Shown piece after piece: positions 7,351 through 21,707 of a DNA stretch of 64,000 nucleotides. A model generated the notes under the pieces. It was not told where the DNA came from. It ran no database searches and saw only the letters and a program-made list of their open reading frames with translations. Source of the DNA: Rhodanobacter glycinis (GTDB taxonomy: Bacteria; Pseudomonadota; Gammaproteobacteria; Xanthomonadales; Rhodanobacteraceae); the NCBI RefSeq assembly GCF_900114325.1, contig NZ_FOSR01000001.1, positions 62,001 through 126,000 on the forward strand. The letters run 5' to 3'. The stretch's first letter is position 1, and each line of letters opens with the position of its first letter. The position numbers and the translations under genes are program-made.

Positions 7351-8244
7351 GTGCGCCGCATAGCCCTGTTCGTTGCCACCAACCTTGCCGTTCTGCTCCT
7401 GCTGAGCATCATTTGCCACCTGTTCGGGGTGGATCGGATGGCTTCCGTCCAGGGCATTGGCGGCAGTACCGGGCTGCTGATCTTCGCGGCAGTGTTTGGC
7501 ATGGGCGGCGCTTTCATTTCACTGGCCATGTCCAAATGGATGGCGAAGATGTCCACCGGTGCGAAGGTGATCGCGCAACCCGCGAACGAAACCGAGCGCT
7601 GGTTGCTGGATACCGTGCGTCATCACGCGCAGAACGCCGGCATCGGCATGCCCGAAGTGGCGATCTACGACGCCCCGGAAATGAACGCCTTCGCCACCGG
7701 TATGACGAAAAACAGCGCGTTGGTGGCGGTGAGCTCCGGCCTGCTGCAGCAGATGGACCGCGAGCAGGTTGCCGCGGTGCTCGGCCATGAGATCGGTCAT
7801 GTGGCCAATGGCGACATGGTCACCATGACCCTGATCCAGGGCGTGCTGAATACGCTGGTGATCCTGGCAGCGCGCATCGTTGGCCGGATGGTGGACAGCT
7901 GGATGAGTGGCGGTCGCGACGACAACCGCGGTGGCGGCGGCATCGGCTATTTCGTGGTGGTGATGGTGCTGCAGGTGGTGTTCGGCCTGTTCGCCTCGAT
8001 GATCGTGATGGCCTTCTCGCGCTGGCGCGAGTTCCATGCCGACGCCGCCGGCGCGAAACTGGCCGGACGCGGTGCGATGATTTCCGCCTTGCAACGGCTG
8101 CAGACCGATCACGGCGAGAACACGCTGCCGAAAACCCTGGCCGCCTTCGGCATTTCCGGCCCGCTGGCGCAGGGCTTCCAGCGTCTGTTCATGAGCCACC
8201 CGCCGCTGAATGAGCGCATCGCCGCGCTGCAAAGCGGTCGCTGA
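7351..8244 (+). CDS. htpX: membrane zinc protease HtpX
   Basis: Inner-membrane M48B metalloprotease (297 residues) that degrades misfolded membrane proteins together with FtsH. Two N-terminal transmembrane helices (residues 5-25 and 40-60) are followed by the zinc site HEIGH (His146, Glu147, His150) with the downstream Glu in FHADAAG. Two further hydrophobic segments lie around residues 160-175 and 205-225. A GTG start at 7351 gives the canonical N-terminus MRRIALFVATN; the longer upstream frame is not conserved. It is followed, in the same direction, by htpG, an envelope/heat-stress pair. Confidence 0.93.
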   Translation: MRRIALFVATNLAVLLLLSIICHLFGVDRMASVQGIGGSTGLLIFAAVFGMGGAFISLAMSKWMAKMSTGAKVIAQPANETERWLLDTVRHHAQNAGIGMPEVAIYDAPEMNAFATGMTKNSALVAVSSGLLQQMDREQVAAVLGHEIGHVANGDMVTMTLIQGVLNTLVILAARIVGRMVDSWMSGGRDDNRGGGGIGYFVVVMVLQVVFGLFASMIVMAFSRWREFHADAAGAKLAGRGAMISALQRLQTDHGENTLPKTLAAFGISGPLAQGFQRLFMSHPPLNERIAALQSGR

Positions 8245-8346
8245 TCCGCCGCTTTTCACTCGCCCTTGCGTGTAGGGGAGGGTTGGGGCGGGGTGCTCTT
8301 GCCCTTATCTTTGAAAGTCCAGGTTGAAAAGCGACCTCCCTCTCAA

Positions 8347-8370
8347 CCTCCCCCTGCGGACAGGGGGAGG
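8347..8370. repeat. GC-rich hairpin between htpX and htpG
   Basis: Perfect 10-bp inverted repeat (CCTCCCCCTG, 4-nt loop, CAGGGGGAGG) 48 bp before the htpG start. It is embedded in a region that also holds a roughly inverted GGGGAGGGTTGGGGCGGGGT stretch at 8274-8300. This looks like a degenerate copy of a genome-wide intergenic repeat. It could also act as a weak terminator for htpX, but no T-run follows. Confidence 0.5.
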
Positions 8371-8417
8371 AGCTATTGTCCATAGTCATAGTCAACGTCT
8401 GTTCGGAATATCCACGC

Positions 8418-10286
8418 ATGAACGCACCCGCCGAAACCCGCAAATTCGAAGCCGAAGTCGCCCAGGTCCTGCACCTGGTCACGCATTCGCTGTACTCGCA
8501 CAAGGAAATCTTCCTGCGCGAGCTGATCTCCAACGCCTCCGACGCCTGCGACAAGCTGCGCTTCGAGTCGATCGCCAACCCGGCGTTGTCAGCGGGTGAC
8601 AGCGAGCTGCATATCGACGTCAGCTGGGATCCGGACGCGCGCACCGTCACCGTGCACGACAACGGCATCGGCATGACCCGCGATGAAGTGGTGGCGAACA
8701 TCGGCACCATCGCCAGCTCCGGTACCAAGCGTTTCCTCGAAGCAATGTCCGGCGAGCAGAAGGCCGACGCGCGCCTGATCGGCCAGTTCGGTGTGGGCTT
8801 CTATTCCGCCTTCGTGGTAGCCGACAAGGTCACCGTGATCACCCGTCGCGCCGATGCGCCGGAAAGCGGCGGCGTCAAATGGGAGAGCGACGGCAAGGGT
8901 GAGTATTCGCTGGAGCAGGTCGACCAGCCGCAGCGCGGCACTTCGGTGATCCTGCACCTGAAGGCTGACGAGGACGAGTTCCTCAAGCGCTGGCAGCTGC
9001 GTTCGCTGATCACCAAGTATTCCGACCACGTTGCCTTCCCGATCCGCATGCCGCAGGAGAAGGACGACAAGCCGACCGACGAATTCGAAACCATCAACGC
9101 CGCCTCGGCGCTGTGGACCAAGCCCAAATCGGAGATTTCCGACGAGGATTACCAGAGCTTCTACAAGTCGCTCGGCCACGACTTCAACGACGCGCTGGCG
9201 TGGACGCACAACCGCGTCGAGGGCAGCCAGAGCTTCACCACCTTGCTGTACCTGCCGTCGCAGCCGCCGTTCGACCTGATGATGGGCGGCCGCGACGAGC
9301 GCAAGGGCCTCAAGCTCTACATCAAGCGCGTCTTCATCATGGACGCCGCCGAAGAGCTGCTGCCGAACTACCTGCGCTTCGTGCGCGGCGTGGTCGATGC
9401 CGACGACCTGCCGCTCAACGTCAGCCGCGAAATCCTGCAGCACAACCGCCAGCTCGATCGCATCAAGGCTGCCTGCGTCAAGCGCGTGCTCGACCTGATC
9501 GAGAAACTGGCGCGCGACGAACCCGAGAAATTCCACACCTTCTACAAGGCCTTCGGCAACACGCTCAAGGAAGGCATCAGCGAAGACGCCAACAACCGCG
9601 AACGCATCGCCAAGCTGCTGCGCTTCGCCAGCACCAAGGGCGAAGGCACCGCGCAGAACGTGTCGCTGGACGACTACATCGGCCGCATGGCCGTCGGCCA
9701 GGACGCGATCTGGTACATCACCGCCGACAGCTACGCCGCCGCCGCCGGCAGCCCGCAGCTGGAAGCGTTCAAGGCCAAGGACATCGAAGTGCTGCTGATG
9801 TCCGACCGCATCGACGAATGGATGATCGGCAGCCTCAGCGAGTACGACGGCAAGAAGCTCAAGAGCGTAGCCAAGGGCGACGTGCCGCTGGACGAAGCCG
9901 ACAAGAAAAAGCAGGAAGAGGCAACCAAGGAAGCCGAGCCGCTGCTGAAGAAACTCAAGGACCTGCTCGGCGATCGCGTGGGTGACGTGAAGGTCTCGGC
10001 CCGCCTCACCGATTCACCGTCGTGCCTGGCCCTGAGCGACTACGAAATGGCACCGCACCTTGCCCGCCTGCTGCGCGAAGCCGGGCAGGACATGCCCGAG
10101 TCCAAGCCCACGCTGGAGATCAACCCCGCTCACGCGCTGGTCAAACGCGTGGAGACCGAAGCCGACGAAGCCAAGGCCAAGGATCTGGCCACGCTGCTGC
10201 TGGAGCAGGCAGAGATTTCCGCCGGCGCGCAGCTGCCGGATCCCGCCGCGTTCGTGCAGCGGATGAACCGGGTGTTGCTGGGGTAA
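8418..10286 (+). CDS. htpG: molecular chaperone HtpG (Hsp90)
   Basis: Cytosolic Hsp90 homologue of 622 residues, an ATP-dependent chaperone. The N-terminal GHKL ATPase domain shows EIFLRELISNASDACDK (metal-binding Asn), DNGIGM, and GQFGVGFYSAF. The middle domain contains LYIKRVFIMD and the arginine-containing LPLNVSREILQ. The C-terminal dimerisation domain is complete and ends LEINPAHALVKR. The start at 8418 (MNAPAETRKFEAEV) is the family N-terminus; the frame's earlier start at 8376 adds 14 non-conserved residues. Confidence 0.96.
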   Translation: MNAPAETRKFEAEVAQVLHLVTHSLYSHKEIFLRELISNASDACDKLRFESIANPALSAGDSELHIDVSWDPDARTVTVHDNGIGMTRDEVVANIGTIASSGTKRFLEAMSGEQKADARLIGQFGVGFYSAFVVADKVTVITRRADAPESGGVKWESDGKGEYSLEQVDQPQRGTSVILHLKADEDEFLKRWQLRSLITKYSDHVAFPIRMPQEKDDKPTDEFETINAASALWTKPKSEISDEDYQSFYKSLGHDFNDALAWTHNRVEGSQSFTTLLYLPSQPPFDLMMGGRDERKGLKLYIKRVFIMDAAEELLPNYLRFVRGVVDADDLPLNVSREILQHNRQLDRIKAACVKRVLDLIEKLARDEPEKFHTFYKAFGNTLKEGISEDANNRERIAKLLRFASTKGEGTAQNVSLDDYIGRMAVGQDAIWYITADSYAAAAGSPQLEAFKAKDIEVLLMSDRIDEWMIGSLSEYDGKKLKSVAKGDVPLDEADKKKQEEATKEAEPLLKKLKDLLGDRVGDVKVSARLTDSPSCLALSDYEMAPHLARLLREAGQDMPESKPTLEINPAHALVKRVETEADEAKAKDLATLLLEQAEISAGAQLPDPAAFVQRMNRVLLG

Positions 10287-10392
10287 GCCGCAGGGTCAAT
10301 TGCCACGAACGTTGGTGCCGGCGTGCGTTTGCGGCCAGAGCGGCGTATGGCATGCACTCCAGCGCTGCATGCCCAGCATGCAGCGCTGGGTC

Positions 10393-10995
10393 TTACATGG
10401 GCAGGGTGGGTGCAGGCATTTCCTGACCATGGATGCCAAGCACAGACAAGGTGCAGGCATCGAGATCGAGCCAGCACGCGACCACCATGCGATTGTCGAT
10501 GCGCCGCGCCGGCCCGGCGCGATGGGCATGGACGCCGATACGGCGAAACAGGCGCTCCATGCTGAGAAACGTCACCGCAACCAGCCGGTGCGCGCCAAGC
10601 CGCAGCGCTTGGCGTACCACCAACGCCAACATTGGCCGGATGGCCCACTCCGGATCGTCACCTGACAGATGCGCGGCGAAGCGCGACAGCTCCCAAGTGC
10701 CTGCGTCCTCGGGTGGCAGCATGGGTTTGGCCAGCAGAAATGGGAACAGCTCCTTCAGCAGGTAGGGGCGCGTGGTGGGTAGTAACCGTGCACACCCGCA
10801 GATCGAGCCGCTGTCGTCGCGGGCGATGACATAGATGGTGTCGTTGCGATCGAACTGGTCGCGCTCCATGCAGCCATCCACGACGGGAAGTTCCCAGCCC
10901 AGTTGCTCGACGAAGACCCTATAGCGGTAGCGCGCGAGTGCGTCGTCGATCTCAGCGGGCAGGCGCCCGCCATCATGCATGGTCGCTTGCATCAT
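10393..10995 (-). CDS. luxI: LuxI-family N-acyl-homoserine lactone synthase
   Basis: A 200-residue autoinducer synthase that makes an AHL from S-adenosylmethionine and an acyl-ACP or acyl-CoA. The conserved LuxI residues are visible: Arg26, Phe28 and Trp34 in YRVFVEQLGWELP, Asp46 and Asp49 in DQFDRND, Arg70 in CGCARLLPT, and Glu102 and Arg105 in WELSRFAA. The acyl-chain length cannot be predicted. Two adjacent ATGs (10995 and 10992) follow AGGGG, so either may start. It is the second gene of a leftward pair after the RsaM-like gene, 208 bp apart, but it has its own lux-box-like dyad in that gap. It is divergent from luxR. Confidence 0.9.
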   Translation of the reverse strand: MMQATMHDGGRLPAEIDDALARYRYRVFVEQLGWELPVVDGCMERDQFDRNDTIYVIARDDSGSICGCARLLPTTRPYLLKELFPFLLAKPMLPPEDAGTWELSRFAAHLSGDDPEWAIRPMLALVVRQALRLGAHRLVAVTFLSMERLFRRIGVHAHRAGPARRIDNRMVVACWLDLDACTLSVLGIHGQEMPAPTLPM

Positions 10996-11027
10996 TCCAC
11001 CCCTGGCTTTCCATTGCAGAAGTGAGA

Positions 11028-11074
11028 ACTACAGCGTCAGATCGAGACATTGATAACTGTCAGAATCGACAGGC
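11028..11074 (-). promoter_or_regulatory. lux box and promoter candidate for luxI
   Basis: Dyad CTGTC-N6-GACAG inside a 20-bp lux-box-like site at 11055-11074, centred at 11064.5. On the minus strand a -10-like TGTAGT lies at 11028-11033, which predicts transcription starting near 11022. The dyad centre is then at about -42.5, the usual distance for LuxR-type activation of luxI. The site is 60 bp upstream of the luxI start. Confidence 0.6.
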
Positions 11075-11203
11075 ATCAGCGGAGTCTGAGGGGGTGAGGC
11101 GTGACGTACTTTTTCTTGCAGTTCGAATCGATGGATGCCCGGGAGCGACGATCGCCACGAGTGCGAGCCGTGCTTGGCCTTCGGCCGGATGCAAGGAGTG
11201 GCT

Positions 11204-11656
11204 CTAGTTGAGGCACGAGCCGCGCGGGTGAAACGCGAGCGGGACGGCTGCGGCCACAATGCATTGCCAATCCAGCATGGCCAGCCCACGGTCAAGCGCC
11301 AAGGTCGTCCGCATCATGCCAAGGTCATGGCCATTGCAGTCGACGGCCATGACATTGCTGCGGATGTCGCCTCCTGCGAGCAGCAGCGTCCCTGCGGCGC
11401 TCTCCTGGTACCAGTCCCAGCCAACCGATATCTGGACAATGTCGTCAGCCACGCCACCAATCCAGCCGGTGCATAGCCACTCGGTGTAACCGGCGCTGAG
11501 TGCATTGATGGCCGTGCGCCACAGATTGTCTAGCAGTGCGGTGTCCAAGCCGGAAGAAAGGTGACGCAATGCCAGACGAGGAATTGCCAGCTCGGGGATG
11601 CGCACGTAACCGTCGGCTTGTGCATCCCGAAAGATGATGGGGGCGGACGTGTTCAT
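11204..11656 (-). CDS. RsaM-like quorum-sensing modulator (DUF4902-type)
   Basis: A 150-residue cytosolic protein between luxI and luxR. Size, position and the segments GYTEW, ISVGWDWY, RSNVMAVD..GHDLG and a late LDWQ match what I remember of the RsaM family, which represses or tunes AHL production in Burkholderia and Pseudomonas fuscovaginae. No DNA-binding domain is recognisable, as in RsaM. The ATG at 11656 has no Shine-Dalgarno, and a TATAGT box lies 7-12 nt before it, so the transcript may be leaderless. The frame extends further upstream into the luxR promoter, but that part is not credible coding sequence. The assignment rests on recalled motifs and context. Confidence 0.7.
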   Translation of the reverse strand: MNTSAPIIFRDAQADGYVRIPELAIPRLALRHLSSGLDTALLDNLWRTAINALSAGYTEWLCTGWIGGVADDIVQISVGWDWYQESAAGTLLLAGGDIRSNVMAVDCNGHDLGMMRTTLALDRGLAMLDWQCIVAAAVPLAFHPRGSCLN

Positions 11657-11662
11657 CGAAGG

Positions 11663-11708
11663 ACTATAACGATTTGTCGCGTGTGCGGACCTGCAGGCTT
11701 TGACAGCG
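11663..11708 (-). promoter_or_regulatory. lux box and promoter candidate for the RsaM-like gene
   Basis: Minus-strand TATAGT at 11663-11668 would start transcription near the A of the ATG at 11656. A CTG-N10-CAG dyad (20-bp site 11689-11708; one half-site is a perfect CAGGT, the other imperfect) is centred at 11698.5, again about -42.5. The same dyad ends 19 bp before the luxR start on the other strand, so LuxR bound here could also affect its own gene. Confidence 0.5.
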
Positions 11709-11727
11709 CGATGGCAGGGAGGGGCGA

Positions 11728-12450
11728 ATGGATCTTCATTGGCAGGATGTCTACCAACAGCTGGGCGCCGCACGCAACGAGCACGAGCTGTTTTTCAGCG
11801 TGGCCGGAATCGCGCGGGAGCTGGGTTTCGACTATTGCTGCTATGGGGTGCGTGTCCCTTATCCTGTGCACAAACCAAGGACGGCCATCTTCGACACGTA
11901 CCCCGCTGGCTGGATGGATCACTATCGGGACAGTGGCTACCTGGACGTGGATCCGGTCGTGCAGGCCGGCTTGCTCAGCAATGAGCTCGTGGTCTGGCCG
12001 CAAACGATGCGCGGCGAAGCGCATCGGCTGTGGGCAGACGCCTGCGAATACGGCATCCGGACGGGGGTGGCGTGCTCCAGCTGGGGGCAGCATGGCGTGT
12101 TCGGCTTGTTGTCGCTGGCGCGCCCTCACGGCGCGCTTGCCTCGTCGGAGATCGACGAAGTGTCACGGTCAGTACATTGGCTGGGCAACTTGACCCACAT
12201 GCTGATGAGCCAGTTTCTGGTGCCCGACATGACGGCGGCAGGCGAGGTGACGTTGACGCAACGCGAGCACGAAGTGCTGATCTGGACCGCCGAAGGCAAG
12301 ACAGCCTACGAGATCGGCCGGATCCTCGGTATCGCCGAGCGCACGGTCAACTTCCATATCAGTAATGTGATGATGAAGCTTGGAGTGGTCAACAAATTGC
12401 AGGCGGTGGTGAAGGCCATCATGACCGGCCTGCTGCAGCCCTTGCGCTGA
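11728..12450 (+). CDS. luxR: LuxR-family AHL-responsive regulator
   Basis: A 240-residue quorum-sensing receptor and transcription factor. The N-terminal autoinducer-binding domain (about residues 15-160) keeps the six invariant residues at Trp62, Tyr66, Asp75, Pro76, Trp90 and Gly113. The C-terminal GerE-type helix-turn-helix (about 174-236) reads LTQREHEVLIWTAEGKTAYEIG followed by ERTVNFHISNVMMKL. A GGGAGGGG ribosome-binding site precedes the ATG. It is divergent from the RsaM-like gene and luxI, and upstream of aidA. With all ligand residues intact it should respond to AHL, most likely that made by the neighbouring LuxI. Confidence 0.93.
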   Translation: MDLHWQDVYQQLGAARNEHELFFSVAGIARELGFDYCCYGVRVPYPVHKPRTAIFDTYPAGWMDHYRDSGYLDVDPVVQAGLLSNELVVWPQTMRGEAHRLWADACEYGIRTGVACSSWGQHGVFGLLSLARPHGALASSEIDEVSRSVHWLGNLTHMLMSQFLVPDMTAAGEVTLTQREHEVLIWTAEGKTAYEIGRILGIAERTVNFHISNVMMKLGVVNKLQAVVKAIMTGLLQPLR

Positions 12451-12464
12451 GCTGGCGATGTTCG

Positions 12465-12513
12465 CCACCTGACAGGATTGGCAGGTGGAAGCGGGGACCC
12501 CGGGTGCGATTCT
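12465..12513 (+). promoter_or_regulatory. strong lux box and promoter candidate for aidA
   Basis: Perfect inverted repeat CCACCTG-N10-CAGGTGG at 12465-12488 contains the classic lux box half-sites ACCTG and CAGGT. It lies between the luxR stop and the aidA start. A modest -10-like GATTCT at 12508-12513 would place +1 near 12519, with the dyad centre (12476.5) at about -42.5. It could also overlap termination of luxR transcripts. Confidence 0.65.
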
Positions 12514-12578
12514 TCGTGTCGACATGCTTGGGCATGTCTTTCGGCAATTTCCGTCACGAACGCACAAGGGGATTCACC

Positions 12579-13133
12579 ATGGCAATGAAGATCATGTTGG
12601 AATCGAGCGCGCAGCAGATCAACGTACTGGTCGTGATCGACACGGAGTACGTCAAGACCAACTATCCGAACCCCAGCAAAGACCCCAGTCATCCCACTGG
12701 AATCAATCACAACAGTCAGTTCATGATCTGCACCGGTTCACGCGGCATCGTCAGTGGGCAAGGGTCCGCCGACCTCAATTTCCGCGCCAACCCGGGTGAT
12801 CTGGTGGCCTTCACCGGCGTGTCGATCTACGACAATTCCGATGATGCGGTGATCGTCTATGGCATCCAGTACTGGAAGGGAGATCAGGTGTTCAACCAGT
12901 TCGTGCCGAACCTGGTAACCCGCAACGGCGCGGTGATGCCTGATGCGAACTCCGAAAACGGCTTGCCGGCGCTGCAGACGAAGATCGATTTTTCCAGCTT
13001 CGACTCGAAGGTGCGCAACGGAGGCACGGAAAACTTCTATGTCGTCTTCGCGCTGTACACGCTTTCCGACAACGGCGAGAACCAGGAAGTCTTCGGCTAC
13101 TACTACTGGGATCCCACCATCACCGTGTCATGA
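12579..13133 (+). CDS. aidA: AidA/PixA family inclusion body protein
   Basis: A 184-residue soluble protein of the PixA/AidA inclusion-body family. The family hallmark near the N-terminus, VIDTEYVKTNYPNPSKD followed by P.GI, is present, as are a central beta-rich region and the C-terminal YYYWDPTI. PixA forms methionine-rich crystals in Xenorhabdus. AidA of Ralstonia and Burkholderia is an autoinducer-dependent protein, linked in Burkholderia cenocepacia to nematode killing. The ATG at 12579 follows AAGGGG; the frame opens earlier at 12504, but the family begins at the chosen Met. It lies directly behind luxR and a lux box, which supports quorum-sensing control. Confidence 0.85.
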   Translation: MAMKIMLESSAQQINVLVVIDTEYVKTNYPNPSKDPSHPTGINHNSQFMICTGSRGIVSGQGSADLNFRANPGDLVAFTGVSIYDNSDDAVIVYGIQYWKGDQVFNQFVPNLVTRNGAVMPDANSENGLPALQTKIDFSSFDSKVRNGGTENFYVVFALYTLSDNGENQEVFGYYYWDPTITVS

Positions 13134-13489
13134 GCGCTTTATAGGGCCAGGGTGTTGGCTGCCATGGCCTTGATGCCGCAATTTCGTGAAAACCAGTCAG
13201 CGAGGGCGCGCAGTCATGCGCTCCCTCGCTGTGTCGTGCGTGAGCGCCGCATGATACGGGGTACCGCGGCACCGCTTGCATCGATAGCCGGACACGATGG
13301 TTCGCGGCCTGACCTTGATGCCGATCCGCGATGCATCGGATTCACGTGATGACCTGATTGGCGGCGAAGCTCAGCAAAAAAAGGCCATTCGCGCTGAACG
13401 CGGCTTGCGTTGACCAGCGCACGCGGAGAGTAGCCATGGTTGGCTACGACTTTGAGGAGCGAGGAAGTCGAAGCGATCACGGGCGATCA

Positions 13490-13531
13490 CCCTTCGACTC
13501 CGGCCTATGGGCCTACGCTCAGGGCGAACGG
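13490..13531. repeat. intergenic palindromic repeat, CCCTTCGAC / GGGCGAACGG type
   Basis: The stretch starts CACCCTTCGACTCCGGCC and ends GCTCAGGGCGAACGG, the pattern of a short dispersed repeat seen in many proteobacterial intergenic regions. The ends are only partly complementary. No transposase is nearby. Confidence 0.5.
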
Positions 13532-13788
13532 TGAGATATCGGCTGAACGTTGTCGCCGATCAGGTGTGAAGGGCGGGCACGTGACGTGGACCTCTGGTGT
13601 TCGCGTGCGACGGCGCATACGGCCACGTCGTCAGTTGGTTGACCTGCACGTGCCCTCACCAGTCAACCGCACGCGCGTGTCTGCGCGAAAGCTGCCTGTC
13701 CCTGTCGTGCGACAGCGGTATGAATTGATGTTGTCCTCACCGTTGGCTTTTGTGCGGGGAGCTCACGGCTGCCTCTTGTGTGCCAAGT

Positions 13789-13834
13789 ATGATAAAAAAA
13801 TATCATTGACACAGTAATGTTAATGAGATATCAA
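13789..13834 (+). promoter_or_regulatory. promoter of the TonB receptor gene with AT-rich dyad
   Basis: A perfect -35 hexamer TTGACA (13806-13811) is followed after 17 bp by TATCAA (13829-13834). Immediately upstream, and sharing one base with the -35, is an inverted repeat ATGATA-A6-TATCAT (13789-13806). This is unusually AT-rich for this genome and is a good operator candidate for an unidentified repressor or activator. Confidence 0.6.
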
Positions 13835-13876
13835 AGTGCCCCAGGGTTGTCCATGCGATTCCATGGGGAGAACGTC

Positions 13877-16222
13877 ATGCAATTTCAGCAGTATCCGCAG
13901 AAGCGACATGGCCTCAGTCTGGCGATAGCCATCGCCTTGCTTGGGTCCTTCAATGCAGTGGCACAGCCGTCCACGCCTGATGGTGGTGATCCCGCGGCAG
14001 GGGCCGCCGTTGGTGGCGTATCCGTGCAAGGCCAGGTGCCCGCGGCGGACGTCGGGGCACAACACGCACAGCAGGCGCAGTCCTCGACCAGCAGCACCGC
14101 GCCGATCGATCTGGCGACAATCGTGGTCACCGCGAACAAGCGCAGCGAGTTGCTGCAGAACGTGCCGATGGCGGTGTCGGTGGTTTCCGGTGACGACCTT
14201 CGTCGCGAAGGCGCCAACAGCTTTGCCGACTACGCCACCCAGATCCCCGGTCTCAACCTGATCTCCACCGCGGCGGGGCAGACCCAGCTGGTATTGCGCG
14301 GCATTACGTCAGGCAGCGGGCAGGCCAATGCCAGCGTCAGTACCTATATCGACGATGCGCCGTACGGTTCGAGCACGGTGTACGCCATCGGCGGTTTGCT
14401 GACGCCGGATATCGATCCGGCGGATATCGAGCGCATCGAGGTGCTGCGCGGCCCGCAAGGCACGCTGTATGGCGCGAACTCGCTGGGTGGGCTGGTGAAG
14501 TTCGTCACCACGCCGCCGGACGCCACTCGCGCCTACGGCCGCGTGACGGTCGGCTATGACAGTGTCAGCGGTGGTGGCAGCGGCCTCACCGAGCGCGCCA
14601 TGTTCAACGTTCCCTTGATCGAGGACAAGCTCGCGCTGCGCGTGAATGCCTATCATCGCGACGATCCCGGCTACATCGACAACGTGGCCACCGGCAAGTC
14701 CGAGGTCAATGAGGACACGGTCAGCGGTGGCCGTGCGCAAGTGCTGTGGACGCCGAACGACAAGGTCTCGGTGCGCTTCTCGGCGCTGGCGCAGAACCTC
14801 AGTGGTGATGGCCTGGCCAATGCCGGCGTGGAAGTGGATCCGACCACGCTCAAGCCCATCTATGGTTACCAGAAGCAGAGCCGCGCCGCGGGTACCGGCC
14901 TGTTCAAGGTCAAATATCGTCTCTATGACCTTTCGATCAATGCGGACCTCGGTTGGGCCACGCTGGTGTCTTCGAGCAGTTACGGCACGCAGCGGGTCAA
15001 TCAGGACCAGGACGTCACCATGGCGTACGGTCCGATGCTCAACCCCGCTTTCGGTCTGGCCAATGGCGGGTATTCGATCAGCGATCCCATCACGTTGGGG
15101 AAATTCACCCAGGAACTTCGACTGCAATCGTCGACGGAGCAAACCCTGGCGTGGCGCGCGGGCGTGTTCTACACGCGCGAAAACACCACGAATCACCAGA
15201 CCATCAATGTCTTCGACGCAACCACCGGGGCGCTGATCGATCTGCCCAGCCTGGCCGAGATTTCCATCGGTCCCGGCATCTTCAAGGAGTGGGCGGGTTA
15301 TGCCGATGTGACCTGGCATGCCACGTCGCAGTTGAGCGTCCTGGTGGGTGCCCGCTATACCCATGACAGCACCACTTATACGCAAACCGGCAGCGGTCTG
15401 TTGACCGGGCCCAGCCAGTTCACCAGTCGCAGCACGGATACGCCCACCACCTTCCTGGTCAATCCCAGTTTCAAGTTCAACGACAACCTGATGGCATACG
15501 TGCGCGTGGCATCGGGTTTCCGTCCCGGTGGCGCGAATGTGGGCGTGCCGCCCGGGCTGGGCGCGCCGGCAACATTCAAGCCGGACAAGCTGACCAGCTA
15601 CGAGCTCGGTTTCAAATCCACCTTGCTGGATCGCAGCATGGTCTTCGATGCCGACGTGTTCTACATCGACTGGAGCCAGATCCAGCTTGCGTCCACCGCG
15701 GGCAATTTCAGCTTCCTCGGCAATGGCGGCAAGGCCAAGAGTCAGGGTGTGGAAGCCAACTGGAAGTACGAGCCCATGCGCGGACTGGTGCTGTCGGCCA
15801 ACGCCAGCTGGACCGATGCGACGTTGACGCAGGACACGCCGCCGGGCTTGTACGGCTACAACGGTGATCGCCTGCCGTGGGTGCCGAAATGGAATGCCAA
15901 CGCGGGCGTGGATTACAACTTCCCGCTGGGCGGTGGCTGGTCGGGGTTCGTCGGCGGCAGCTATCGCTACGTGGGCGCGCGCATGACGGATTTCCTGTCC
16001 GAGCCGGGCCCGCGCTTCACGGTGCCGTCCTATCACGGTGTCGATCTGCACGCCGGAGTCTATGTCGGCAACTGGACGATCCGGGGGTACGTCAAGAATC
16101 TGACCAACGCCCGCGGCATCACCTCGCTGTCTTCCGAAACCGAGGATCCGCGCGGGAGTCCGTTTGCCGCGTCCTATGTGCCGCCGCGCACCGTCGGCGT
16201 GACCGTCGGCCTGGACTTCTGA
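13877..16222 (+). CDS. TonB-dependent outer membrane receptor
   Basis: A 781-residue TonB-dependent transporter. The N-terminal signal peptide (about residues 12-32, ending NAVAQ) is followed by a low-complexity Ala/Gly/Gln linker. The plug domain begins near residue 80 (IVVTANKRSELLQNVPMAVSVV) with the typical GLNLIS, VLRGI and IERIEVLRGPQGTLYGANSLGG. A 22-strand barrel ends in the terminal aromatic GLDF. The ATG at 13877 follows GGGGAG. It heads an operon-like run with a serine hydrolase, a dipeptide epimerase and a peptide transporter, so a peptide or muropeptide substrate is inferred. Iron import is less likely from context. Confidence 0.9.
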   Translation: MQFQQYPQKRHGLSLAIAIALLGSFNAVAQPSTPDGGDPAAGAAVGGVSVQGQVPAADVGAQHAQQAQSSTSSTAPIDLATIVVTANKRSELLQNVPMAVSVVSGDDLRREGANSFADYATQIPGLNLISTAAGQTQLVLRGITSGSGQANASVSTYIDDAPYGSSTVYAIGGLLTPDIDPADIERIEVLRGPQGTLYGANSLGGLVKFVTTPPDATRAYGRVTVGYDSVSGGGSGLTERAMFNVPLIEDKLALRVNAYHRDDPGYIDNVATGKSEVNEDTVSGGRAQVLWTPNDKVSVRFSALAQNLSGDGLANAGVEVDPTTLKPIYGYQKQSRAAGTGLFKVKYRLYDLSINADLGWATLVSSSSYGTQRVNQDQDVTMAYGPMLNPAFGLANGGYSISDPITLGKFTQELRLQSSTEQTLAWRAGVFYTRENTTNHQTINVFDATTGALIDLPSLAEISIGPGIFKEWAGYADVTWHATSQLSVLVGARYTHDSTTYTQTGSGLLTGPSQFTSRSTDTPTTFLVNPSFKFNDNLMAYVRVASGFRPGGANVGVPPGLGAPATFKPDKLTSYELGFKSTLLDRSMVFDADVFYIDWSQIQLASTAGNFSFLGNGGKAKSQGVEANWKYEPMRGLVLSANASWTDATLTQDTPPGLYGYNGDRLPWVPKWNANAGVDYNFPLGGGWSGFVGGSYRYVGARMTDFLSEPGPRFTVPSYHGVDLHAGVYVGNWTIRGYVKNLTNARGITSLSSETEDPRGSPFAASYVPPRTVGVTVGLDF

Positions 16223-16248
16223 CTATGACTCATCGGAGTAAGCGCTTC

Positions 16249-18267
16249 ATGAATCGCTATGTGAAATGCCTTGCGTCGCTGGTCGCCACTTGCATCACTG
16301 GTCTGGCGATGGCGCAGGTGCCGCCGCCGATGCAGCCGGCATCGACGACTCCTGCGGCCGTACCCGCATCTGCATCGGCGGCGGTCGATTCCACCGCGAA
16401 TGCCAGTGGCCAACTCCACGCGCTGACTGGCGCGGACCTGTCGAACTTCTTCGACGGGTTGGTGCCGTTTGCATTGCGGCGGGGCGACGTGGCCGGCGGC
16501 GTGATTTCGGTGGTGAAAGACGGCAAAGTGCTCTTCGCCAAGGGCTATGGCTACAACAACCTGAAGCAACGGACGGTGCCGTCTCCCGCGGACACGCTGT
16601 TCCGCATCGGCTCGACGTCCAAGTTGTTTACATGGACGGCGGCGATGCAGCTGGTGCAGGCGGGCAAGCTGAATCTGGACAGCGACGTCAACGACTATCT
16701 CGACTTCAAGATTCCGCCGTTCCAGGGCAAGCCAATCACGTTGCGCAACCTGTTGACGCAAAGCCCCGGCTTTGAAGATACCGCGCGCAACCTGATTTCC
16801 ACCGATGGCAAGCCGGTCGATCTGGAGCGTTACCTGAAATCGCACCTGCCGGCGCGGATTTATCCGCCAGGCGATGTGGTGGCGTACTCCAATTACGGTT
16901 GCGGCCTGGCCGGCTATATCGTGCAGCGGGTGTCCGGGCAGAGCTTCGACGATTACGTCGAGCAGCACCTCTTCAAGCCGCTGGACATGCAGCACTCCAC
17001 CTTCCGTCAGCCGCTGCCGGCACAGTTCGAGCCGCTGATGGCCGCCAGTTACGACAAAGCCTCCGACGGCAAGCTGCAGCCCTTCGAGATCGTCGACCCG
17101 GCCCCGGCCGGTGCGATGAGCTCGACGGCGCTGGACATGGCGCATTTCATGATCGCCCAGCTGCAAGGCGGCAGTTACGACGGCAACTCGATCCTGTCGC
17201 CGGCCACGACCGCCTTGATGCACACGCCGCAACGCACCGATGCGCCGGGGATGAATGGCTACGCCCTGGGTTTCTACCAGGAGAACAGCCACGGCCAGAC
17301 CATCATCGGCCATGCCGGCGATACGGACTATTTCCATACCGATCTGCATCTGATGCTGGATGCCGACGTTGGCGTGTTCATGTCGTTCAACAGCGCGGGC
17401 AACGAGGGTGGTGCCGAAGTGATTCGCGCAGGAATCTTCAACGCATTCCTCGACCGCTATTTCCCGGTCGCGACACCGCAGCTGCCCACCGCTGCGACAG
17501 CCAAGGCCGATGCCGCGCGAGTGGCGGGCTGGTATCTGTCCAGTCGCCGCAACGACAGTGCGCTGCGCATGCTCTACGCCTTGACCCAGACCCAGGTATC
17601 GGCCTTGCCCGACGGCACGATCCAGACTGCGGCGTTCATGAATCCCTCCGGTGCACCGATGCATTGGCGCGAGGTGGGGCCGCTGAAATATCAGCAGGTG
17701 GATGGTCCCTACCATCTGGATTTCGTGGCGGCGGCCAATGGCGACATTCGTTACTGGGTCACCGACTCATTGCCGCCGGTGATGGTTTTCCAGACAGTGA
17801 CGGGCCTGCACACGCTGGGCAGCATCGAACTGCTGGGTACGTTGTCGTTGCTGCTCCTGCTGGCTACCTTGCTGAGCTGGTTGTGCGGTTGGCTGGTGCG
17901 TCGTCACTACGGCCGGGGACTTGCGCTGAATCCGAAGCAGCGCCGCTTCCGCCTGTGGTCGCGACTGGGCGTGCTGGCGCTGTTTGTCACGCTGCTTGGC
18001 TGGCTGATCCTGATGGTGAGCATGGCCAGCGACCAGAGCCTGCTGCTGCAGGGCGGCGCGACGCCTTGGCTTTATCTGCTCTATGCCTTGGGCGTACTGG
18101 CCTTGCTGGGTGTGGTGTTGATCGTGCACCACACGGTGCGCAGCTGGATGACGCCACGTCGCGGTCGCTGGGTGCTGGTGGGCGAGACCCTGCTGGCGCT
18201 GGCGGCGATCTATCTGGCGTGGCTGATCCTGGCGCTCAGGATGATCAGCTTCAACGTCCACTACTGA
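16249..18267 (+). CDS. serine hydrolase, class C beta-lactamase fold, with C-terminal membrane segments
   Basis: A 672-residue exported serine hydrolase of the beta-lactamase/DD-peptidase (AmpC, PBP4*-like) fold. A signal peptide covers about residues 1-22. Catalytic motifs are STSK (Ser122-x-x-Lys125), YSN (213-215) and HAG (355-357, the KTG equivalent). A small accessory domain follows (about 420-510). Four hydrophobic segments in the last ~150 residues predict anchoring in the inner membrane, with the catalytic domain in the periplasm. The start was chosen before the signal peptide with GGAG upstream; an ATG at 16225 is possible. It is 26 bp behind the TonB receptor. A D-amino acid peptidase role is inferred from context. 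Confidence 0.82.
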   Translation: MNRYVKCLASLVATCITGLAMAQVPPPMQPASTTPAAVPASASAAVDSTANASGQLHALTGADLSNFFDGLVPFALRRGDVAGGVISVVKDGKVLFAKGYGYNNLKQRTVPSPADTLFRIGSTSKLFTWTAAMQLVQAGKLNLDSDVNDYLDFKIPPFQGKPITLRNLLTQSPGFEDTARNLISTDGKPVDLERYLKSHLPARIYPPGDVVAYSNYGCGLAGYIVQRVSGQSFDDYVEQHLFKPLDMQHSTFRQPLPAQFEPLMAASYDKASDGKLQPFEIVDPAPAGAMSSTALDMAHFMIAQLQGGSYDGNSILSPATTALMHTPQRTDAPGMNGYALGFYQENSHGQTIIGHAGDTDYFHTDLHLMLDADVGVFMSFNSAGNEGGAEVIRAGIFNAFLDRYFPVATPQLPTAATAKADAARVAGWYLSSRRNDSALRMLYALTQTQVSALPDGTIQTAAFMNPSGAPMHWREVGPLKYQQVDGPYHLDFVAAANGDIRYWVTDSLPPVMVFQTVTGLHTLGSIELLGTLSLLLLLATLLSWLCGWLVRRHYGRGLALNPKQRRFRLWSRLGVLALFVTLLGWLILMVSMASDQSLLLQGGATPWLYLLYALGVLALLGVVLIVHHTVRSWMTPRRGRWVLVGETLLALAAIYLAWLILALRMISFNVHY

Positions 18268-18323
18268 CTTCATTCGCGCGGCGGCGGATCTGCGTCGCCG
18301 CGCATTTCATCCAGGAAGCAAGC

Positions 18324-19352
18324 ATGAATATCCATGTTGGCGGGCGGTTGCGCCTGCGAGCGACACCCAAGAGCTGGGCGATCGAGGCACCGTTCCACAT
18401 CACCGGCTACACCTTCAACGCGTTCGATGCAGTGATCGTCGAGCTGACGGATGAACAAGGGCATACAGGGCGCGCGGAAGCGCAGGGCGTCTATTACCAC
18501 CAGGACACATCCGCTTCGATGGTGGCGCAGGTCGAAGCGTTGCGCGCACGGGTCGAAGCCGGCATCACGCGGGAGGAATTGCAGGCCCTGTTGCCGGCCG
18601 GCGGCGCGCGCAACGCGTTGGACTGTGCCTTGTGGGATCTCGAAGCCAAGCGTGCCGACAAGCCGGTCTGGCAGCTTGCCGGACTGGATGCACCGAAGCC
18701 GTTGCTGACCACCTATACATTGAGTGCGGAGGAGCCGGAGGTGATGGCAAGTCGCGCGGGTGCCTACGCGCAGGCCCGGGCGATCAAGCTCAAGCTGACT
18801 GATGATGATCGCAATGCCGAACGCGTGCTGGCCGTGCGCAAGGCGCGTCCGGACGTATGGCTGATGGTCGACGCCAACCAGGGTTTCACGCGGGAGTCGT
18901 TCGCGCGCCTACTGCCGACGCTGGTGGATGCGCGCGTGGATGTCGTCGAGCAACCGTTCCCGGTGGGCAACGAAGCGTGGCTGGATGGCCTGGAACGCCC
19001 GATCCGCATCGCGGCGGACGAAAGCGTGCAGGATCGCAGTGACCTGGCCAGGTTGGTCGGTCGCGTCGACGTCATCAACATCAAGCTGGACAAGTGCGGC
19101 GGCCTCACCGAAGGATTGGCCCTGGCCGAGGAAGCACGCAAGCTGGGCTTCGAATTGATGGTCGGCAACATGGGTGGTTCGTCGCTGGCGATGGGACCCG
19201 CTTTCGTGGTGGGCCAGTTGTGCGACGTGGTGGATCTTGACGGGCCGCTTGGCCTGCTGGCCGATCACGTTCCGTCGGTGGTGTACGAGGGCGGTACCAT
19301 CTGGTGCCCCGACGCGCTATGGGGCGGCCCGCTGGCGGTGCCGGCATCGTGA
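18324..19352 (+). CDS. dipeptide epimerase of the enolase superfamily (L-Ala-D/L-Glu epimerase type)
   Basis: A 342-residue muconate-lactonizing/mandelate racemase-subgroup enzyme. It shows the Lys-x-Lys acid/base motif (Lys155-x-Lys157), metal ligands Asp183 (MVDAN), Glu209 (VEQP) and Asp232 (ADES), and the opposite lysine in NIKLDKCGG (Lys254/Lys257). This arrangement is typical of enzymes that epimerise dipeptides such as L-Ala-D-Glu derived from murein. Substrate specificity within the subgroup varies, so Ala-Glu is likely but not certain. The ATG at 18324 follows CAGGAAG. It lies between a serine hydrolase and a POT peptide transporter on the same strand. Confidence 0.85.
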   Translation: MNIHVGGRLRLRATPKSWAIEAPFHITGYTFNAFDAVIVELTDEQGHTGRAEAQGVYYHQDTSASMVAQVEALRARVEAGITREELQALLPAGGARNALDCALWDLEAKRADKPVWQLAGLDAPKPLLTTYTLSAEEPEVMASRAGAYAQARAIKLKLTDDDRNAERVLAVRKARPDVWLMVDANQGFTRESFARLLPTLVDARVDVVEQPFPVGNEAWLDGLERPIRIAADESVQDRSDLARLVGRVDVINIKLDKCGGLTEGLALAEEARKLGFELMVGNMGGSSLAMGPAFVVGQLCDVVDLDGPLGLLADHVPSVVYEGGTIWCPDALWGGPLAVPAS

Positions 19353-19386
19353 GCGCGTGCAATCAGCAAGGAGACCTGTCGGCGTG

Positions 19387-20709
19387 ATGTCCAGCATGGC
19401 GGCCCCATCCATCGAGAAAAACTGGTTCGGTCACCCGCGTGGCCTGACCGTGCTGTTCCTCACCGAAATGTGGGAGATGTTCTCCTTCTTCGGCATGCGC
19501 GCGATCCTGGTCTATTACATGACCATGCATCTGGACATGGAGCAGGAGTACGCCTCGCTGGTCTATGGCGCGTACGCGGCCTTTGTCTACTTCACCCCGG
19601 TGTTCGGCGGCATGCTCGCCGATCGCTGGCTGGGCAAGAGCCGCGCCGTGGTCATCGGCGGCTCGATGATGGCGCTCGGCCATTTCATGATGTCGTCGGA
19701 AGCCTTGTTCTATCCGGCGTTGTGCATGATTGCGCTGGGCAATGGGCTGTTCCTGCCCAGCCTGGCCAGCCAGATCGAAGGGCTGTATCGCGACGGCGAC
19801 GTGCGCAGCAAGAGCGCGTACAACATCTATTACGTCGGCATCAATCTGGGTGGATTTCTGGCGCCGCTGGTGTGCGGCACGCTGGGCGAGGCGTTTGGCT
19901 GGCACTGGGGTTTTGCGGCCGCCGGCATCGGCATGTTGCTGTCGTTGGTGATCTATCTGTGCGGCCGTCGCTATCTGCCGCCGGAGCCCAAGCGCGGTGT
20001 CGAGGCGCGCGCGGCACGACCACCGATGGACCGGGCCGCGCGTGATCGCTTCGCCTTGCTGATCGGCATCGCCGCCATCGTGGTGATTTTCCGTGGCGCC
20101 TATGAGCAGAACGGCAACACCATTGCGTTGTGGGCCGACACCGGCATCGACCGGCAACTGACCGCAAGCTGGTCGATACCGATGACCTGGTTCCAGTCGA
20201 TCAACTCCTTGGCCGTGTTCATCTTCACGCCCGTGTTGGTGGCGCGCTGGGCGCGGCTGGCGAAGCGTGGCGTGGATACGCCGCTGCTGGCACGCATGGC
20301 ATTCGGCGCGACGATTGTCGGTGCGTCGTACGTGGCCCTGGGCCTGGTGGCGGCATGGAGCGAGGCGCATGGCACGCGTGCGAGCTGGGTGTGGCTTTTC
20401 GTCTGGTTCGTGGTGTTCACCATCGGCGAGCTGTACATCCTGCCGGTCGGGCTGGCGTTGTTCGGGCGCATGGCGCCGGAGGGTTTCCGTGCCACCAGCA
20501 TTGCCACGTGGTTCTTCGCAGGGTTCTTCGGCAACCTGCTGGCCGGCGGGCTGGGCACGCTGTGGAGCCTGATGAACCACGGCCTGTTCTTCGTGCTGAT
20601 CGGTGCGGTCTCCGGGCTGTCAGCCGTGCTTTTGTATATGCTCAGTCGGCGCCATCGCGGCGTGGGACAACAGGGAGAGGTCGGCGGCACTGCGGTGCTG
20701 GCCCGATGA
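19387..20709 (+). CDS. POT/PTR family proton-dependent oligopeptide transporter
   Basis: A 440-residue inner-membrane transporter of the POT branch of the MFS, importing di- and tripeptides with protons. The first helix carries the family ExxE(R)-type motif in variant form, TEMWEMFSFFGMRAILVYYM; the usual Arg after the second Glu is Met here. YGAYAAFVYFTPVFGGMLADRWLG (two halves) and GFFGNLLAGGLG near the end are typical. About 12 hydrophobic helices are visible. An ATG at 19387 (or GTG at 19384) starts it. It probably brings hydrolase-released dipeptides into the cell for the epimerase encoded 34 bp upstream. Confidence 0.87.
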   Translation: MSSMAAPSIEKNWFGHPRGLTVLFLTEMWEMFSFFGMRAILVYYMTMHLDMEQEYASLVYGAYAAFVYFTPVFGGMLADRWLGKSRAVVIGGSMMALGHFMMSSEALFYPALCMIALGNGLFLPSLASQIEGLYRDGDVRSKSAYNIYYVGINLGGFLAPLVCGTLGEAFGWHWGFAAAGIGMLLSLVIYLCGRRYLPPEPKRGVEARAARPPMDRAARDRFALLIGIAAIVVIFRGAYEQNGNTIALWADTGIDRQLTASWSIPMTWFQSINSLAVFIFTPVLVARWARLAKRGVDTPLLARMAFGATIVGASYVALGLVAAWSEAHGTRASWVWLFVWFVVFTIGELYILPVGLALFGRMAPEGFRATSIATWFFAGFFGNLLAGGLGTLWSLMNHGLFFVLIGAVSGLSAVLLYMLSRRHRGVGQQGEVGGTAVLAR

Positions 20710-20719
20710 GCGCGCACTG

Positions 20720-21661
20720 ATGATCAAAGACCTGCAGAAAAACCTGAAAGACCACTGGGACAGCTTCACCACGTCCGAGCAGAAAATTGCCACCTACCTG
20801 CTGCAGAACCCGGGCGGCATCCCGTTCGAAACCGCCTCGTCGCTGGGCCAACGCGTGGGCGTGAGCGCGATGACGGTGGGGCGCTTCCTGCGCAACCTCG
20901 GCTATGCCGGCCTGAATGAACTGAAGGAAGAGTTGCGCGGCGACGCACCGTGGCTGCAGCTGTACCAGAACCCGGACGTGGCGGGCGATCCGGCCACGAT
21001 GTCCGAAAGCCTGAAAGCCGAAATCCGCGGCATCACCACGGCGCATGCGCTGACCCGCACGGCAGAGTGGAAGGGGGTGGTCAAGCTGCTGGTGGAGGCT
21101 GACCGCGTTTCGGTGGCCAGTTTTCATCAGGGGCGCTTCCTCGGGCTGGGTTTGGCCAGTCTGATGCAGAGCGTCAAACCGCGTACCCGTTTCGACGAAG
21201 GCCTGGATGGCGCCTATACCGACCTGCTGCTGGATTCCAGCGGAAAAAGCTGTGTGCTGCTGATCGATTTCCGGCGCTATTCGCGGCACTTCCGCATTCT
21301 GGCCGAGGAATGCGTGGCGCGCGGCATCCCGCTGGCCATCATCACCGACAGCCAGTGTTACTGGGCGCGCCAGCTCACCGACAAGGTGCTGATGCTGCCG
21401 GCCGAGATGGAGCGGCCGTGGCACAACTTCACTGCTGCCATGAGCCTGCTCAGCCTGCTGATCGGCGCGGTCACGCGCGCGCAGGGCGACATGTTCGATC
21501 GCATCGGCGACATCACCCAGTTGCGCCAGAAACTGGTGGGTTATGTCGAGGCGCCGCCTGTCATCGACCGGAATGCAAAAGCTGCCACGAAGGCAACTCG
21601 GTCCACCGCAAAGAAAAGCGGTAGCAGCTCACGCAAACGCAACGGCAAACCGGGGGCCTGA
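20720..21661 (+). CDS. MurR/RpiR family transcriptional regulator
   Basis: A 313-residue regulator. The N-terminal HTH_6 domain (about residues 1-75) shows FTTSEQKIATYLLQNP and SASLGQ-type SSLGQRVGVSAMTVGRFLRNLGY. The C-terminal SIS domain (about 115-265) has VSVASFHQGRFLGLGLASLMQ and LLIDFRRYSR, and binds phosphosugars in relatives such as MurR. A basic Lys/Ser-rich tail ends the protein. It begins 10 bp after the peptide transporter gene and is the likely local regulator of the peptide-utilisation genes. The effector is unknown. Confidence 0.85.
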   Translation: MIKDLQKNLKDHWDSFTTSEQKIATYLLQNPGGIPFETASSLGQRVGVSAMTVGRFLRNLGYAGLNELKEELRGDAPWLQLYQNPDVAGDPATMSESLKAEIRGITTAHALTRTAEWKGVVKLLVEADRVSVASFHQGRFLGLGLASLMQSVKPRTRFDEGLDGAYTDLLLDSSGKSCVLLIDFRRYSRHFRILAEECVARGIPLAIITDSQCYWARQLTDKVLMLPAEMERPWHNFTAAMSLLSLLIGAVTRAQGDMFDRIGDITQLRQKLVGYVEAPPVIDRNAKAATKATRSTAKKSGSSSRKRNGKPGA

Positions 21662-21707
21662 CGGCTGCGGGCAGGCCTGCAATGGCCATGCGCTGAAGTC
21701 AGGCTTG

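What the first reader, a model, noticed from the sequence alone, without database searches (positions are those of the whole stretch)
10393..13133. Self-contained quorum-sensing island: luxI, RsaM-like gene, luxR and aidA with three lux-box-like dyads
Synthase, modulator, receptor and a family-typical output protein are adjacent. CTG-N10-CAG dyads occur upstream of luxI (11055-11074), the RsaM-like gene (11689-11708) and aidA (12465-12488, arms CCACCTG/CAGGTGG). For each, a plausible -10 box puts the dyad centre at about -42.5. RsaM proteins and AidA are known from Burkholderia/Ralstonia-type systems. Finding them together in a Xanthomonadales-type chromosome suggests the whole regulatory cassette was kept or transferred as a unit, with RsaM giving negative feedback.
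Basis: partly seen in the sequence, partly recalled or inferred. Interest (0 to 1): 0.7.

Follow-up and report, generated by a model that had tools for sequence, protein, structure and literature searches.

The report
Acquired four-gene bacterial signalling cassette
This bacterium carries a compact four-gene cell-to-cell signalling unit (a signal synthase, its receptor, a likely brake called RsaM and a likely output protein called AidA) that was not found in 14 other genomes of its genus, so it was probably acquired as one piece from a Burkholderia-like lineage, which suggests that such a circuit can move whole.

Summary
Window 10393-13133 encodes LuxI (PF00765), an RsaM/DUF4902 protein, LuxR (PF03472+PF00196) and a PixA/AidA protein. 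CTG-N10-CAG is not enriched in the window as such (25 seen, 23.4 expected), but its placement is conserved: strict dyads lie upstream of luxI in 20 of 21 rsaM cassettes and in the luxR/rsaM gap in 16 of 21; in the 16 tested for other spacers, those give 0-3. The cassette is foreign to its genus: no LuxI, DUF4902 or PixA match in 14 sibling genomes, and sibling G197 has 132 bp where the window has 3,494 bp. Concatenated LuxI+RsaM+LuxR groups the window with Burkholderiaceae (100/99) and rejects grouping with 13 other cassettes of its own family (p-AU 7e-5); LuxR alone does not decide (p-AU 0.46). A strict box made from the three dyads occurs four times in the 3.87-Mb genome, three of them here. 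Best reading: a horizontally acquired CepIR/SolIR-type circuit with RsaM feedback and AidA as local output, a new member of a known kind. Function is inferred.

The parts
10393..10995 (-). luxI-type N-acyl-homoserine-lactone synthase, 200 aa
   Evidence: PF00765 E 1e-22; best solved relative 3p2f 'AHL synthase' E 3.5e-72; RYRVF, LGWEL, ERDQFD, CARLLPTT, WELSRF stretches located; only PF00765 match in the genome
11057..11072 (-). lux-box-like dyad upstream of luxI (CTGTCGATTCTGACAG on the luxI strand), with -10-like TGTAGT
   Evidence: strict CTG-N10-CAG at this place in 20 of 21 cassettes
11204..11656 (-). rsaM (DUF4902), 150 aa
   Evidence: PF16245 E 1.9e-30; 4o2h BCAM1869 E 1.5e-34; Trp60 in 26 of 26 and Trp80, 82, 130 in 27 of 27 aligned sequences
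11691..11706 (-). lux-box-like dyad in the 71-bp luxR/rsaM divergent gap; TATAGT begins 23 nt after it and the rsaM ATG 35 nt after it
   Evidence: strict dyad in this gap in 16 of 21 cassettes
11728..12450 (+). luxR-type receptor/activator, 240 aa (SolR/CepR-like)
   Evidence: PF03472 E 1.4e-34, PF00196 E 5.3e-20; named hits include a Rhodanobacter sp. MAG 65% and SolR of Ralstonia 57-58%; only PF03472 match in the genome
12465..12488 (.). lux-box-like dyad upstream of aidA, 7-bp arms CCACCTG/CAGGTGG, centre about 102 bp before the aidA ATG
   Evidence: a dyad about 106 bp before the aidA match also in Caballeronia sp. SBC1 (L080:7887)
12579..13133 (+). aidA (PixA/inclusion-body family), 184 aa, likely output gene
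   Evidence: PF12306 E 6.7e-50; 4lzk PixA E 1.8e-32; 82% to a Rhodanobacter sp. MAG, 79% to Collimonas arenae
10295..13788 (.). stretch absent from the same place in sibling G197 (132 bp there instead)
   Evidence: blastn blocks window 9261-10294 / L050 1-1037 and window 13789-21571 / L050 1170-8917; junctions read
10358..10390 (.). strong hairpin between the convergent htpG and luxI genes, no T run; possible shared terminator
   Evidence: -34 kcal/mol, z -3.86; no T-tailed terminator found in 10200-13900

Best explanation
Four adjacent genes (luxI, rsaM, luxR, aidA) and three CTG-N10-CAG dyads form a likely quorum-sensing unit that was probably acquired as one piece from a Burkholderiaceae-type lineage, and in which LuxR bound to the LuxI-made signal is predicted to switch on luxI, aidA and rsaM while RsaM would restrain signal production. 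Shown: the genes, the family matches, the conserved dyads, the unoccupied site in a sibling, and the placement of luxI-rsaM-luxR with Burkholderiaceae. Inferred: the signal (probably C8- or C6-homoserine lactone, from the nearest characterised relatives), activation from dyads near -42.5, RsaM acting as a brake by an unknown protein-level route, and AidA as the output. The genome has no other LuxI or AHL-type LuxR match and no other intergenic copy of the strict box, so the circuit is likely to act mostly on itself and on aidA. rsaM is predicted to be made from a leaderless mRNA, its ATG lying where transcription should begin.
For: Family matches; sole LuxI and sole Autoind_bind match in the genome. 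Dyads: N10 in 16 of 16 luxI-side and 12 of 16 rsaM-side gaps, the twelve other spacers from N4 to N16 in 0-3 and 0-1 of 16; a -10-like hexamer at a fixed offset after the luxI dyad (mean 3.42 of 6 at offset 23 against 0.4-2.4 at 21 other offsets, 19 loci). Transfer: 0 of 14 siblings match LuxI, DUF4902 or PixA; unoccupied site in G197; window with 5 Burkholderiaceae cassettes 100/99, window+family rejected p-AU 7e-5. Unit: Caballeronia sp. SBC1 has aidA, luxR, rsaM, luxI together; RsaM, LuxR and AidA hits named Rhodanobacter sp. MAG or sharing its contig length all list a 56,152-base contig. Literature (passages): aidA is CepR-dependent (88.7-fold by microarray) and BCAM1869/rsaM falls 5.9-fold in a cepR mutant (PMC2753556); direct CepR control of BCAM1869 is reported (PMC3633348, citing Wei 2011); aidA falls 31-fold without SolI (PMC4596706); AHL raises abaM, and AbaM restrains QS (PMC8088503); cep box consensus CTGTAAAAGTTACCAGTT (PMC1766932).
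Against: I saw no expression, binding or AHL data for this organism. The aidA promoter has only a 3/6 -10 match. The LuxR-only tree with wider sampling does not reject window+family (p-AU 0.457). In the concatenated tree the two intended outgroup rows did not stay together: L088 (Burkholderia RsaM2 type, no LuxR) fell on the family side. No shared repeat or mobility domain marks the insertion, so the route of entry is unknown. aidA was not placed on a tree, so its joint arrival rests on linkage and shared absence. BCAM1869 was unchanged in the cepR cciIR mutant of the same study (PMC2753556). TofM of B. glumae acts positively on toxoflavin in the absence of TofR (PMC10710839), and SdiA of Photorhabdus negatively affects its neighbouring aidA (PMC10143992), so signs of regulation can differ.
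Confidence: 0.78

Rival explanations
1. The cassette is ancestral in the genus or family and was lost from the other genomes; it is old and vertically inherited rather than acquired.
For: 13 other genomes of the family have luxR-rsaM-luxI; the LuxR-only tree does not reject window+family; 5 of the 14 siblings are at 95% completeness or less.
Against: Concatenated tree rejects window+family (p-AU 7e-5); all three families are unmatched in 14 of 14 siblings; none of the 13 other rsaM genomes has a PixA match.
Confidence: 0.1
2. luxI-rsaM-luxR arrived as a unit but aidA joined separately and is not under LuxR control.
For: aidA has lower GC (55.7%) than luxI, rsaM, luxR (61-64%); AidA is more conserved with distant taxa (79% Collimonas) than LuxR is; weak -10 in its promoter; the family's other rsaM genomes lack PixA.
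Against: 7-bp-arm dyad about 102 bp before aidA, matched at about 106 bp in Caballeronia; a Rhodanobacter sp. MAG contig and two unnamed contigs are listed, by equal contig length, for both LuxR and AidA hits; in Ralstonia and B. cenocepacia aidA is strongly QS-dependent.
Confidence: 0.12
3. LuxR here works mainly as a repressor of aidA or of the luxR/rsaM gap, released by the signal, as proposed for SdiA and its neighbouring aidA in Photorhabdus.
For: Photorhabdus SdiA negatively affects aidA (PMC10143992, passages); the rsaM-side dyad lies 21-37 bp before the luxR ATG, where it could also block luxR; cepR is negatively autoregulated in B. cenocepacia (PMC1766932, passages).
Against: Relatives SolR and CepR activate aidA, and CepR activates cepI; the luxI and rsaM -10 spacing fits activation.
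Confidence: 0.05

Closest known systems
CepR-BCAM1869(RsaM)-CepI of Burkholderia cenocepacia
   Same: Same three-gene order and orientation; CTG-N10-CAG dyads before luxI and in the luxR/rsaM gap; rsaM ATG 37 nt after the dyad there, 35 nt here (locus L086); aidA is a CepR target (PMC2753556).
   Different: aidA is not beside the cassette (about 650 kb away on the same replicon of the strain searched); 55 candidate cep boxes are reported for that genome (PMC1766932) against one extra, intragenic, strict box here, though by different motifs; identity 54/51/61% for LuxR/RsaM/LuxI.
SolI/SolR-aidA of Ralstonia solanacearum
   Same: aidA genes next to solR and strongly SolI/R-dependent (PMC4596706, PMC11298618, PMC10143992, passages); SolR is among the nearest named LuxRs, 57-58%.
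   Different: The word RsaM does not occur in the main text of PMC11298618; Ralstonia has aidC and lecM too, and a Phc hierarchy above it.
Four-gene cluster of the Caballeronia sp. SBC1 megaplasmid
   Same: aidA, luxR, rsaM and luxI together; dyads before aidA and luxI. SBC2 has AidA and RsaM matches about 1 kb apart.
   Different: aidA is turned toward luxR; no strict dyad in the luxR/rsaM gap; on a 2-Mb replicon.
AbaR-AbaM-AbaI of Acinetobacter baumannii
   Same: Type 1 order (PMC10710839); AHL activates abaM and abaI, AbaM restrains both: the proposed loop (PMC8088503, passages).
   Different: The locus is described with three genes, no aidA (PMC8088503); RsaMs of different genera are mostly around 25% alike (PMC10710839); not compared here.

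Membership tests
LuxI/LuxR AHL quorum sensing | Autoinducer-synthase domain with its conserved stretches | tested here: met
   PF00765 81 bits against cut-off 24; stretches located; their role is recalled
LuxI/LuxR AHL quorum sensing | Autoinducer-binding domain plus GerE HTH, with the invariant pocket residues | tested here: met
   W62, Y66, D75, W90, G113 among positions kept in at least 97% of 120 LuxRs; their role is recalled from TraR
LuxI/LuxR AHL quorum sensing | AHL made and sensed | not testable with these tools
   needs culture extracts and reporters
RsaM (PF16245) | DUF4902 match, 140-170 aa, next to luxI/luxR as own unit (PMC10710839) | tested here: met
   105.6 bits against 25, 150 aa, type 1 order; separate transcription not tested
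RsaM (PF16245) | Quartet of tryptophans in the core | tested here: met
   W60 in 26 of 26, W80, W82, W130 in 27 of 27 aligned rows, aligned to those of 4o2h
RsaM (PF16245) | Represses luxI/AHL production | not testable with these tools
   inferred from AbaM and others
AidA/PixA (PF12306) | PixA domain over the full length | tested here: met
   170 bits against 21, residues 13-183
AidA/PixA (PF12306) | LuxR-dependent expression (AidA of Ralstonia and B. cenocepacia) | not testable with these tools
   dyad present, -10 weak
lux/cep box | CTG-N10-CAG dyad, spacing kept, upstream of luxI | tested here: met
   20 of 21 cassettes strict, the other one base off
Mobile island | Occupied and unoccupied site | tested here: met
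   one sibling, G197, with both flanks
Mobile island | Integrase, transposase or flanking repeats | tested here: not met
   no repeat of 8 bp or more shared between the junctions; no mobility domain among the 6 proteins scanned

The most novel reading that the evidence does not exclude
A portable one-locus social circuit: signal, receptor, brake and effector moved together into a chromosome with no other AHL system, where the receptor's only intergenic strict binding sites are the circuit's own, and where the brake is made from a signal-activated leaderless mRNA, a wiring shared with Burkholderia.
Probability: 0.35. Interest if true: 0.6.

Novelty: new member of a known kind. Interest (0 to 1): 0.4.

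Why it matters
RsaM is a strong but mechanistically unexplained brake on quorum sensing, studied where it sits in large networks. A genome in which the whole system seems to be one 2.7-kb locus with one output, with siblings that lack it, gives a minimal background for asking what RsaM touches and whether a quorum-sensing circuit works on arrival. The predicted leaderless rsaM transcript, shared with Burkholderia, is a concrete and cheap test of how the brake is timed.

Tried and rejected
Rejected: enrichment of CTG-N10-CAG as evidence by itself (25 against 23.4). Rejected: the LuxR tree alone as proof of transfer (p-AU 0.457). Rejected: a wider regulon by strict box; the one extra match lies inside a DUF3025 gene and the reversed control also gave one. 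The strict pattern was built from the three window dyads, so it can miss diverged sites. Looked for and not found: direct or inverted repeats at the junctions, sigma-70 promoters (0 against 1.3 in shuffles) and T-tailed terminators (0 against 2.2) in 10200-13900; lack of -35 boxes fits activator-dependent promoters but proves nothing. The TSS map of B. cenocepacia J2315 (PMC4603805, passages) reports leaderless transcripts, enriched in regulators, but its main text does not name BCAM1869. Class-wide sampling for aidA linkage gave only the window's genome (1 of 369). The genome-contig scan with LuxI found one relative.

Rows left out of the dyad counts: L088 (RsaM2 type, no luxR beside it), L077-L079 (luxI without rsaM hit or cut contig), L084 (distant class hit). 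In the LuxR tree I used 20 of the 120 listed hits (641 in all), four of the five nearest being unnamed; the group that I labelled Burkholderiaceae there held one Jeongeupia row.
Full report
Genes. The window holds luxI (10393-10995, -), rsaM (11204-11656, -), luxR (11728-12450, +) and aidA (12579-13133, +) between htpG and a TonB-dependent receptor gene. Each passes its Pfam cut-off. LuxI's best solved relative is 3p2f (E 3.5e-72; that it is B. glumae TofI is recalled). RsaM matches 4o2h, BCAM1869 (E 1.5e-34), and keeps the four tryptophans that mark the family. AidA matches solved PixA proteins. The genome has one LuxI match and one Autoind_bind match.

Dyads. CTG-N10-CAG is common in this GC-rich DNA: 25 in the window against 23.4 expected. 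What is not chance is where it sits. In 16 cassettes (window, Trinickia terrae L003, Caballeronia L080, 13 of the window's family) an N10 dyad lies between rsaM and luxI in 16 and between luxR and rsaM in 12; the twelve other spacers tried (N4-N9, N11-N16) give 0-3 and 0-1. Three Burkholderia loci add 3 of 3 on both sides, B. arboris 0 on the luxI side and 1 on the rsaM side, B. glumae 1 and 0, both misses being one base off: 20 of 21 and 16 of 21 in all. These cassettes share ancestry and are not independent. In 10 of the first 16 the dyad centre is 65-69 bp before the start of the luxI match. A -10-like hexamer stands at one offset after the luxI dyad (mean 3.42 of 6 at offset 23; 0.4-2.4 at the other 21 offsets; 19 loci). 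The dyad form agrees with the published cep box CTGTAAAAGTTACCAGTT (PMC1766932, passages), and the B. cenocepacia luxI dyad found here is the cepI box in that paper's Table 2.

Which promoters. rsaM: TATAGT at exactly the place that puts the dyad centre at -42.5. luxI: TGTAGT one base off. aidA: at best 3 of 6.

Leaderless rsaM. In the window, Trinickia, B. stagnalis, B. cenocepacia and B. multivorans the rsaM ATG is 35, 36, 36, 37 and 38 nt after the dyad, and 12, 12, 12, 12 and 13 nt after the first base of the -10-like hexamer, which is where transcription should start; B. arboris gives 37 nt, and B. glumae 38 nt behind a one-off dyad. The three Burkholderia and B. arboris also have an in-frame TTG 12 nt further on. 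Caballeronia has no strict dyad there. Family-type cassettes with a dyad have longer leaders: candidate starts lie 44-114 nt after it. This is a prediction; the main text of the B. cenocepacia TSS paper does not name the gene (PMC4603805, passages).

Foreign to the genus. Of 233 family genomes, 14 match DUF4902, 17 LuxI, 3 PixA; in the 15 genomes of the genus each is found only in the window's. All 14 DUF4902 genomes have luxR-rsaM-luxI together; 13 of them have no PixA match. Against sibling G197, homology stops at window 10294 and resumes at 13789, with 132 bp in G197 in which I read, by eye, a terminator-like hairpin behind htpG. In the stretches fetched from the other 13 siblings (2.1-13 kb) no block of 200 bp or more matches window 10295-23575, so the place after htpG is variable. 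GC of 10295-13788 is 60.7% against 65.1% for the window. No repeats or mobility domains mark the ends. The stretch 13350-13568 is a dispersed repeat of this genome (37 matches to 13134-13788, itself included), so not all of the 3.5 kb is foreign.

Origin. Mean identity of the window to five Burkholderiaceae cassettes is 62/50/54% (LuxI/RsaM/LuxR), to 13 family cassettes 48/36/40%. In the concatenated tree the window joins the five (100/99), and window+family is rejected (p-AU 7e-5); the two rows meant as outgroup did not stay together, L088 falling on the family side. In the LuxR-only tree of 40 rows the window's clade (with a Rhodanobacter sp. MAG and four unnamed proteins, 100/99) lies among Burkholderiaceae, but window+family is not rejected (p-AU 0.457); the family branch is long. 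Among the hits for RsaM, LuxR and AidA is each time one listed as Rhodanobacter sp. MAG with a 56,152-base contig; that they share one contig is inferred from equal lengths. No tool named the window's organism; a Rhodanobacteraceae host is my inference.

The unit elsewhere. Caballeronia sp. SBC1 has aidA, luxR, rsaM and luxI in a row, with a dyad before aidA at a distance like the window's. Ralstonia keeps aidA beside solIR (PMC4596706, PMC11298618, passages). DUF4902 and PixA are each rare: 2 and 1 of 369 class genomes, the window's included. So adjacency of the four is not chance, and the kind is known.

How it likely works. LuxI makes a short-chain AHL (C8 or C6, by kinship). LuxR with AHL binds the three dyads and activates luxI, rsaM and aidA; from the 71-bp gap it might also restrain luxR, as cepR is negatively autoregulated (PMC1766932). 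RsaM then lowers AHL production: in A. baumannii AHL raises abaM, and AbaM restrains abaI and abaR (PMC8088503, passages). In B. cenocepacia rsaM falls 5.9-fold in a cepR mutant but is unchanged in the cepR cciIR mutant (PMC2753556), and is reported as a direct CepR target (PMC3633348 citing Wei 2011). AidA is the output: in B. cenocepacia aidA and its downstream ORF hold the most highly regulated genes of the cepR mutant (aidA 88.7-fold by microarray, PMC2753556). RsaM binds neither DNA nor AHL and its mechanism is unknown (PMC10710839, three of four parts of the text read). A strict box from the three dyads occurs four times in the genome, three here and one inside a DUF3025 gene, so I expect a small regulon; the box is narrow, so diverged sites would be missed.

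Known or new. In the listings no title or abstract opening describes this four-gene unit, or AHL signalling in Rhodanobacter, Dyella or Luteibacter; only the top rows of the longer listings were shown, and the library lacks most subscription journals. RsaM in Rhodanobacter and Stenotrophomonas is in print (PMC10710839). I file it as a new member of the CepIR/SolIR-RsaM kind, of interest for its completeness, its likely mobility and its small apparent reach.

Noticed in passing
window 11657-11727 and L003, L085-L087, L104, L105: The rsaM ATG sits 35-38 nt after the dyad and about 12-13 nt after the first base of a -10-like hexamer in Burkholderia-type cassettes: predicted leaderless mRNA.
   Followed up: partly
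window 10295-23576 against L050-L063: The stretch downstream of htpG differs in content among genus siblings (of 14 fetched, only G197 matches 13789-23576): a variable region.
   Followed up: partly
window 13350-13568: Dispersed repeat with copies on many contigs of the genome (37 matches to 13134-13788, itself included), near the right edge of the cassette.
   Followed up: partly
window 10358-10390: Very stable hairpin without T run between convergent htpG and luxI; it may replace the terminator-like hairpin seen behind htpG in sibling G197.
   Followed up: partly
L070:5156, L072:4849, L073:5410, L066:6763, L069:8875, L064:6434, L065:7113, L074:7863: Further CTG-N10-CAG dyads beyond luxR or luxI in family cassettes, perhaps marking neighbouring target genes of that lineage.
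   Followed up: no
G041, G230, G223 (L077-L079): LuxI-bearing genomes of the family without a DUF4902 match; the G223 match is cut at the contig edge.
   Followed up: no
L082 (Rhizobium leguminosarum pRL3) 7965-9199: Two PixA-family genes in tandem amid IS5 and IS6 transposase genes, without a luxR or luxI listed within 8 kb (that gene table is incomplete).
   Followed up: no
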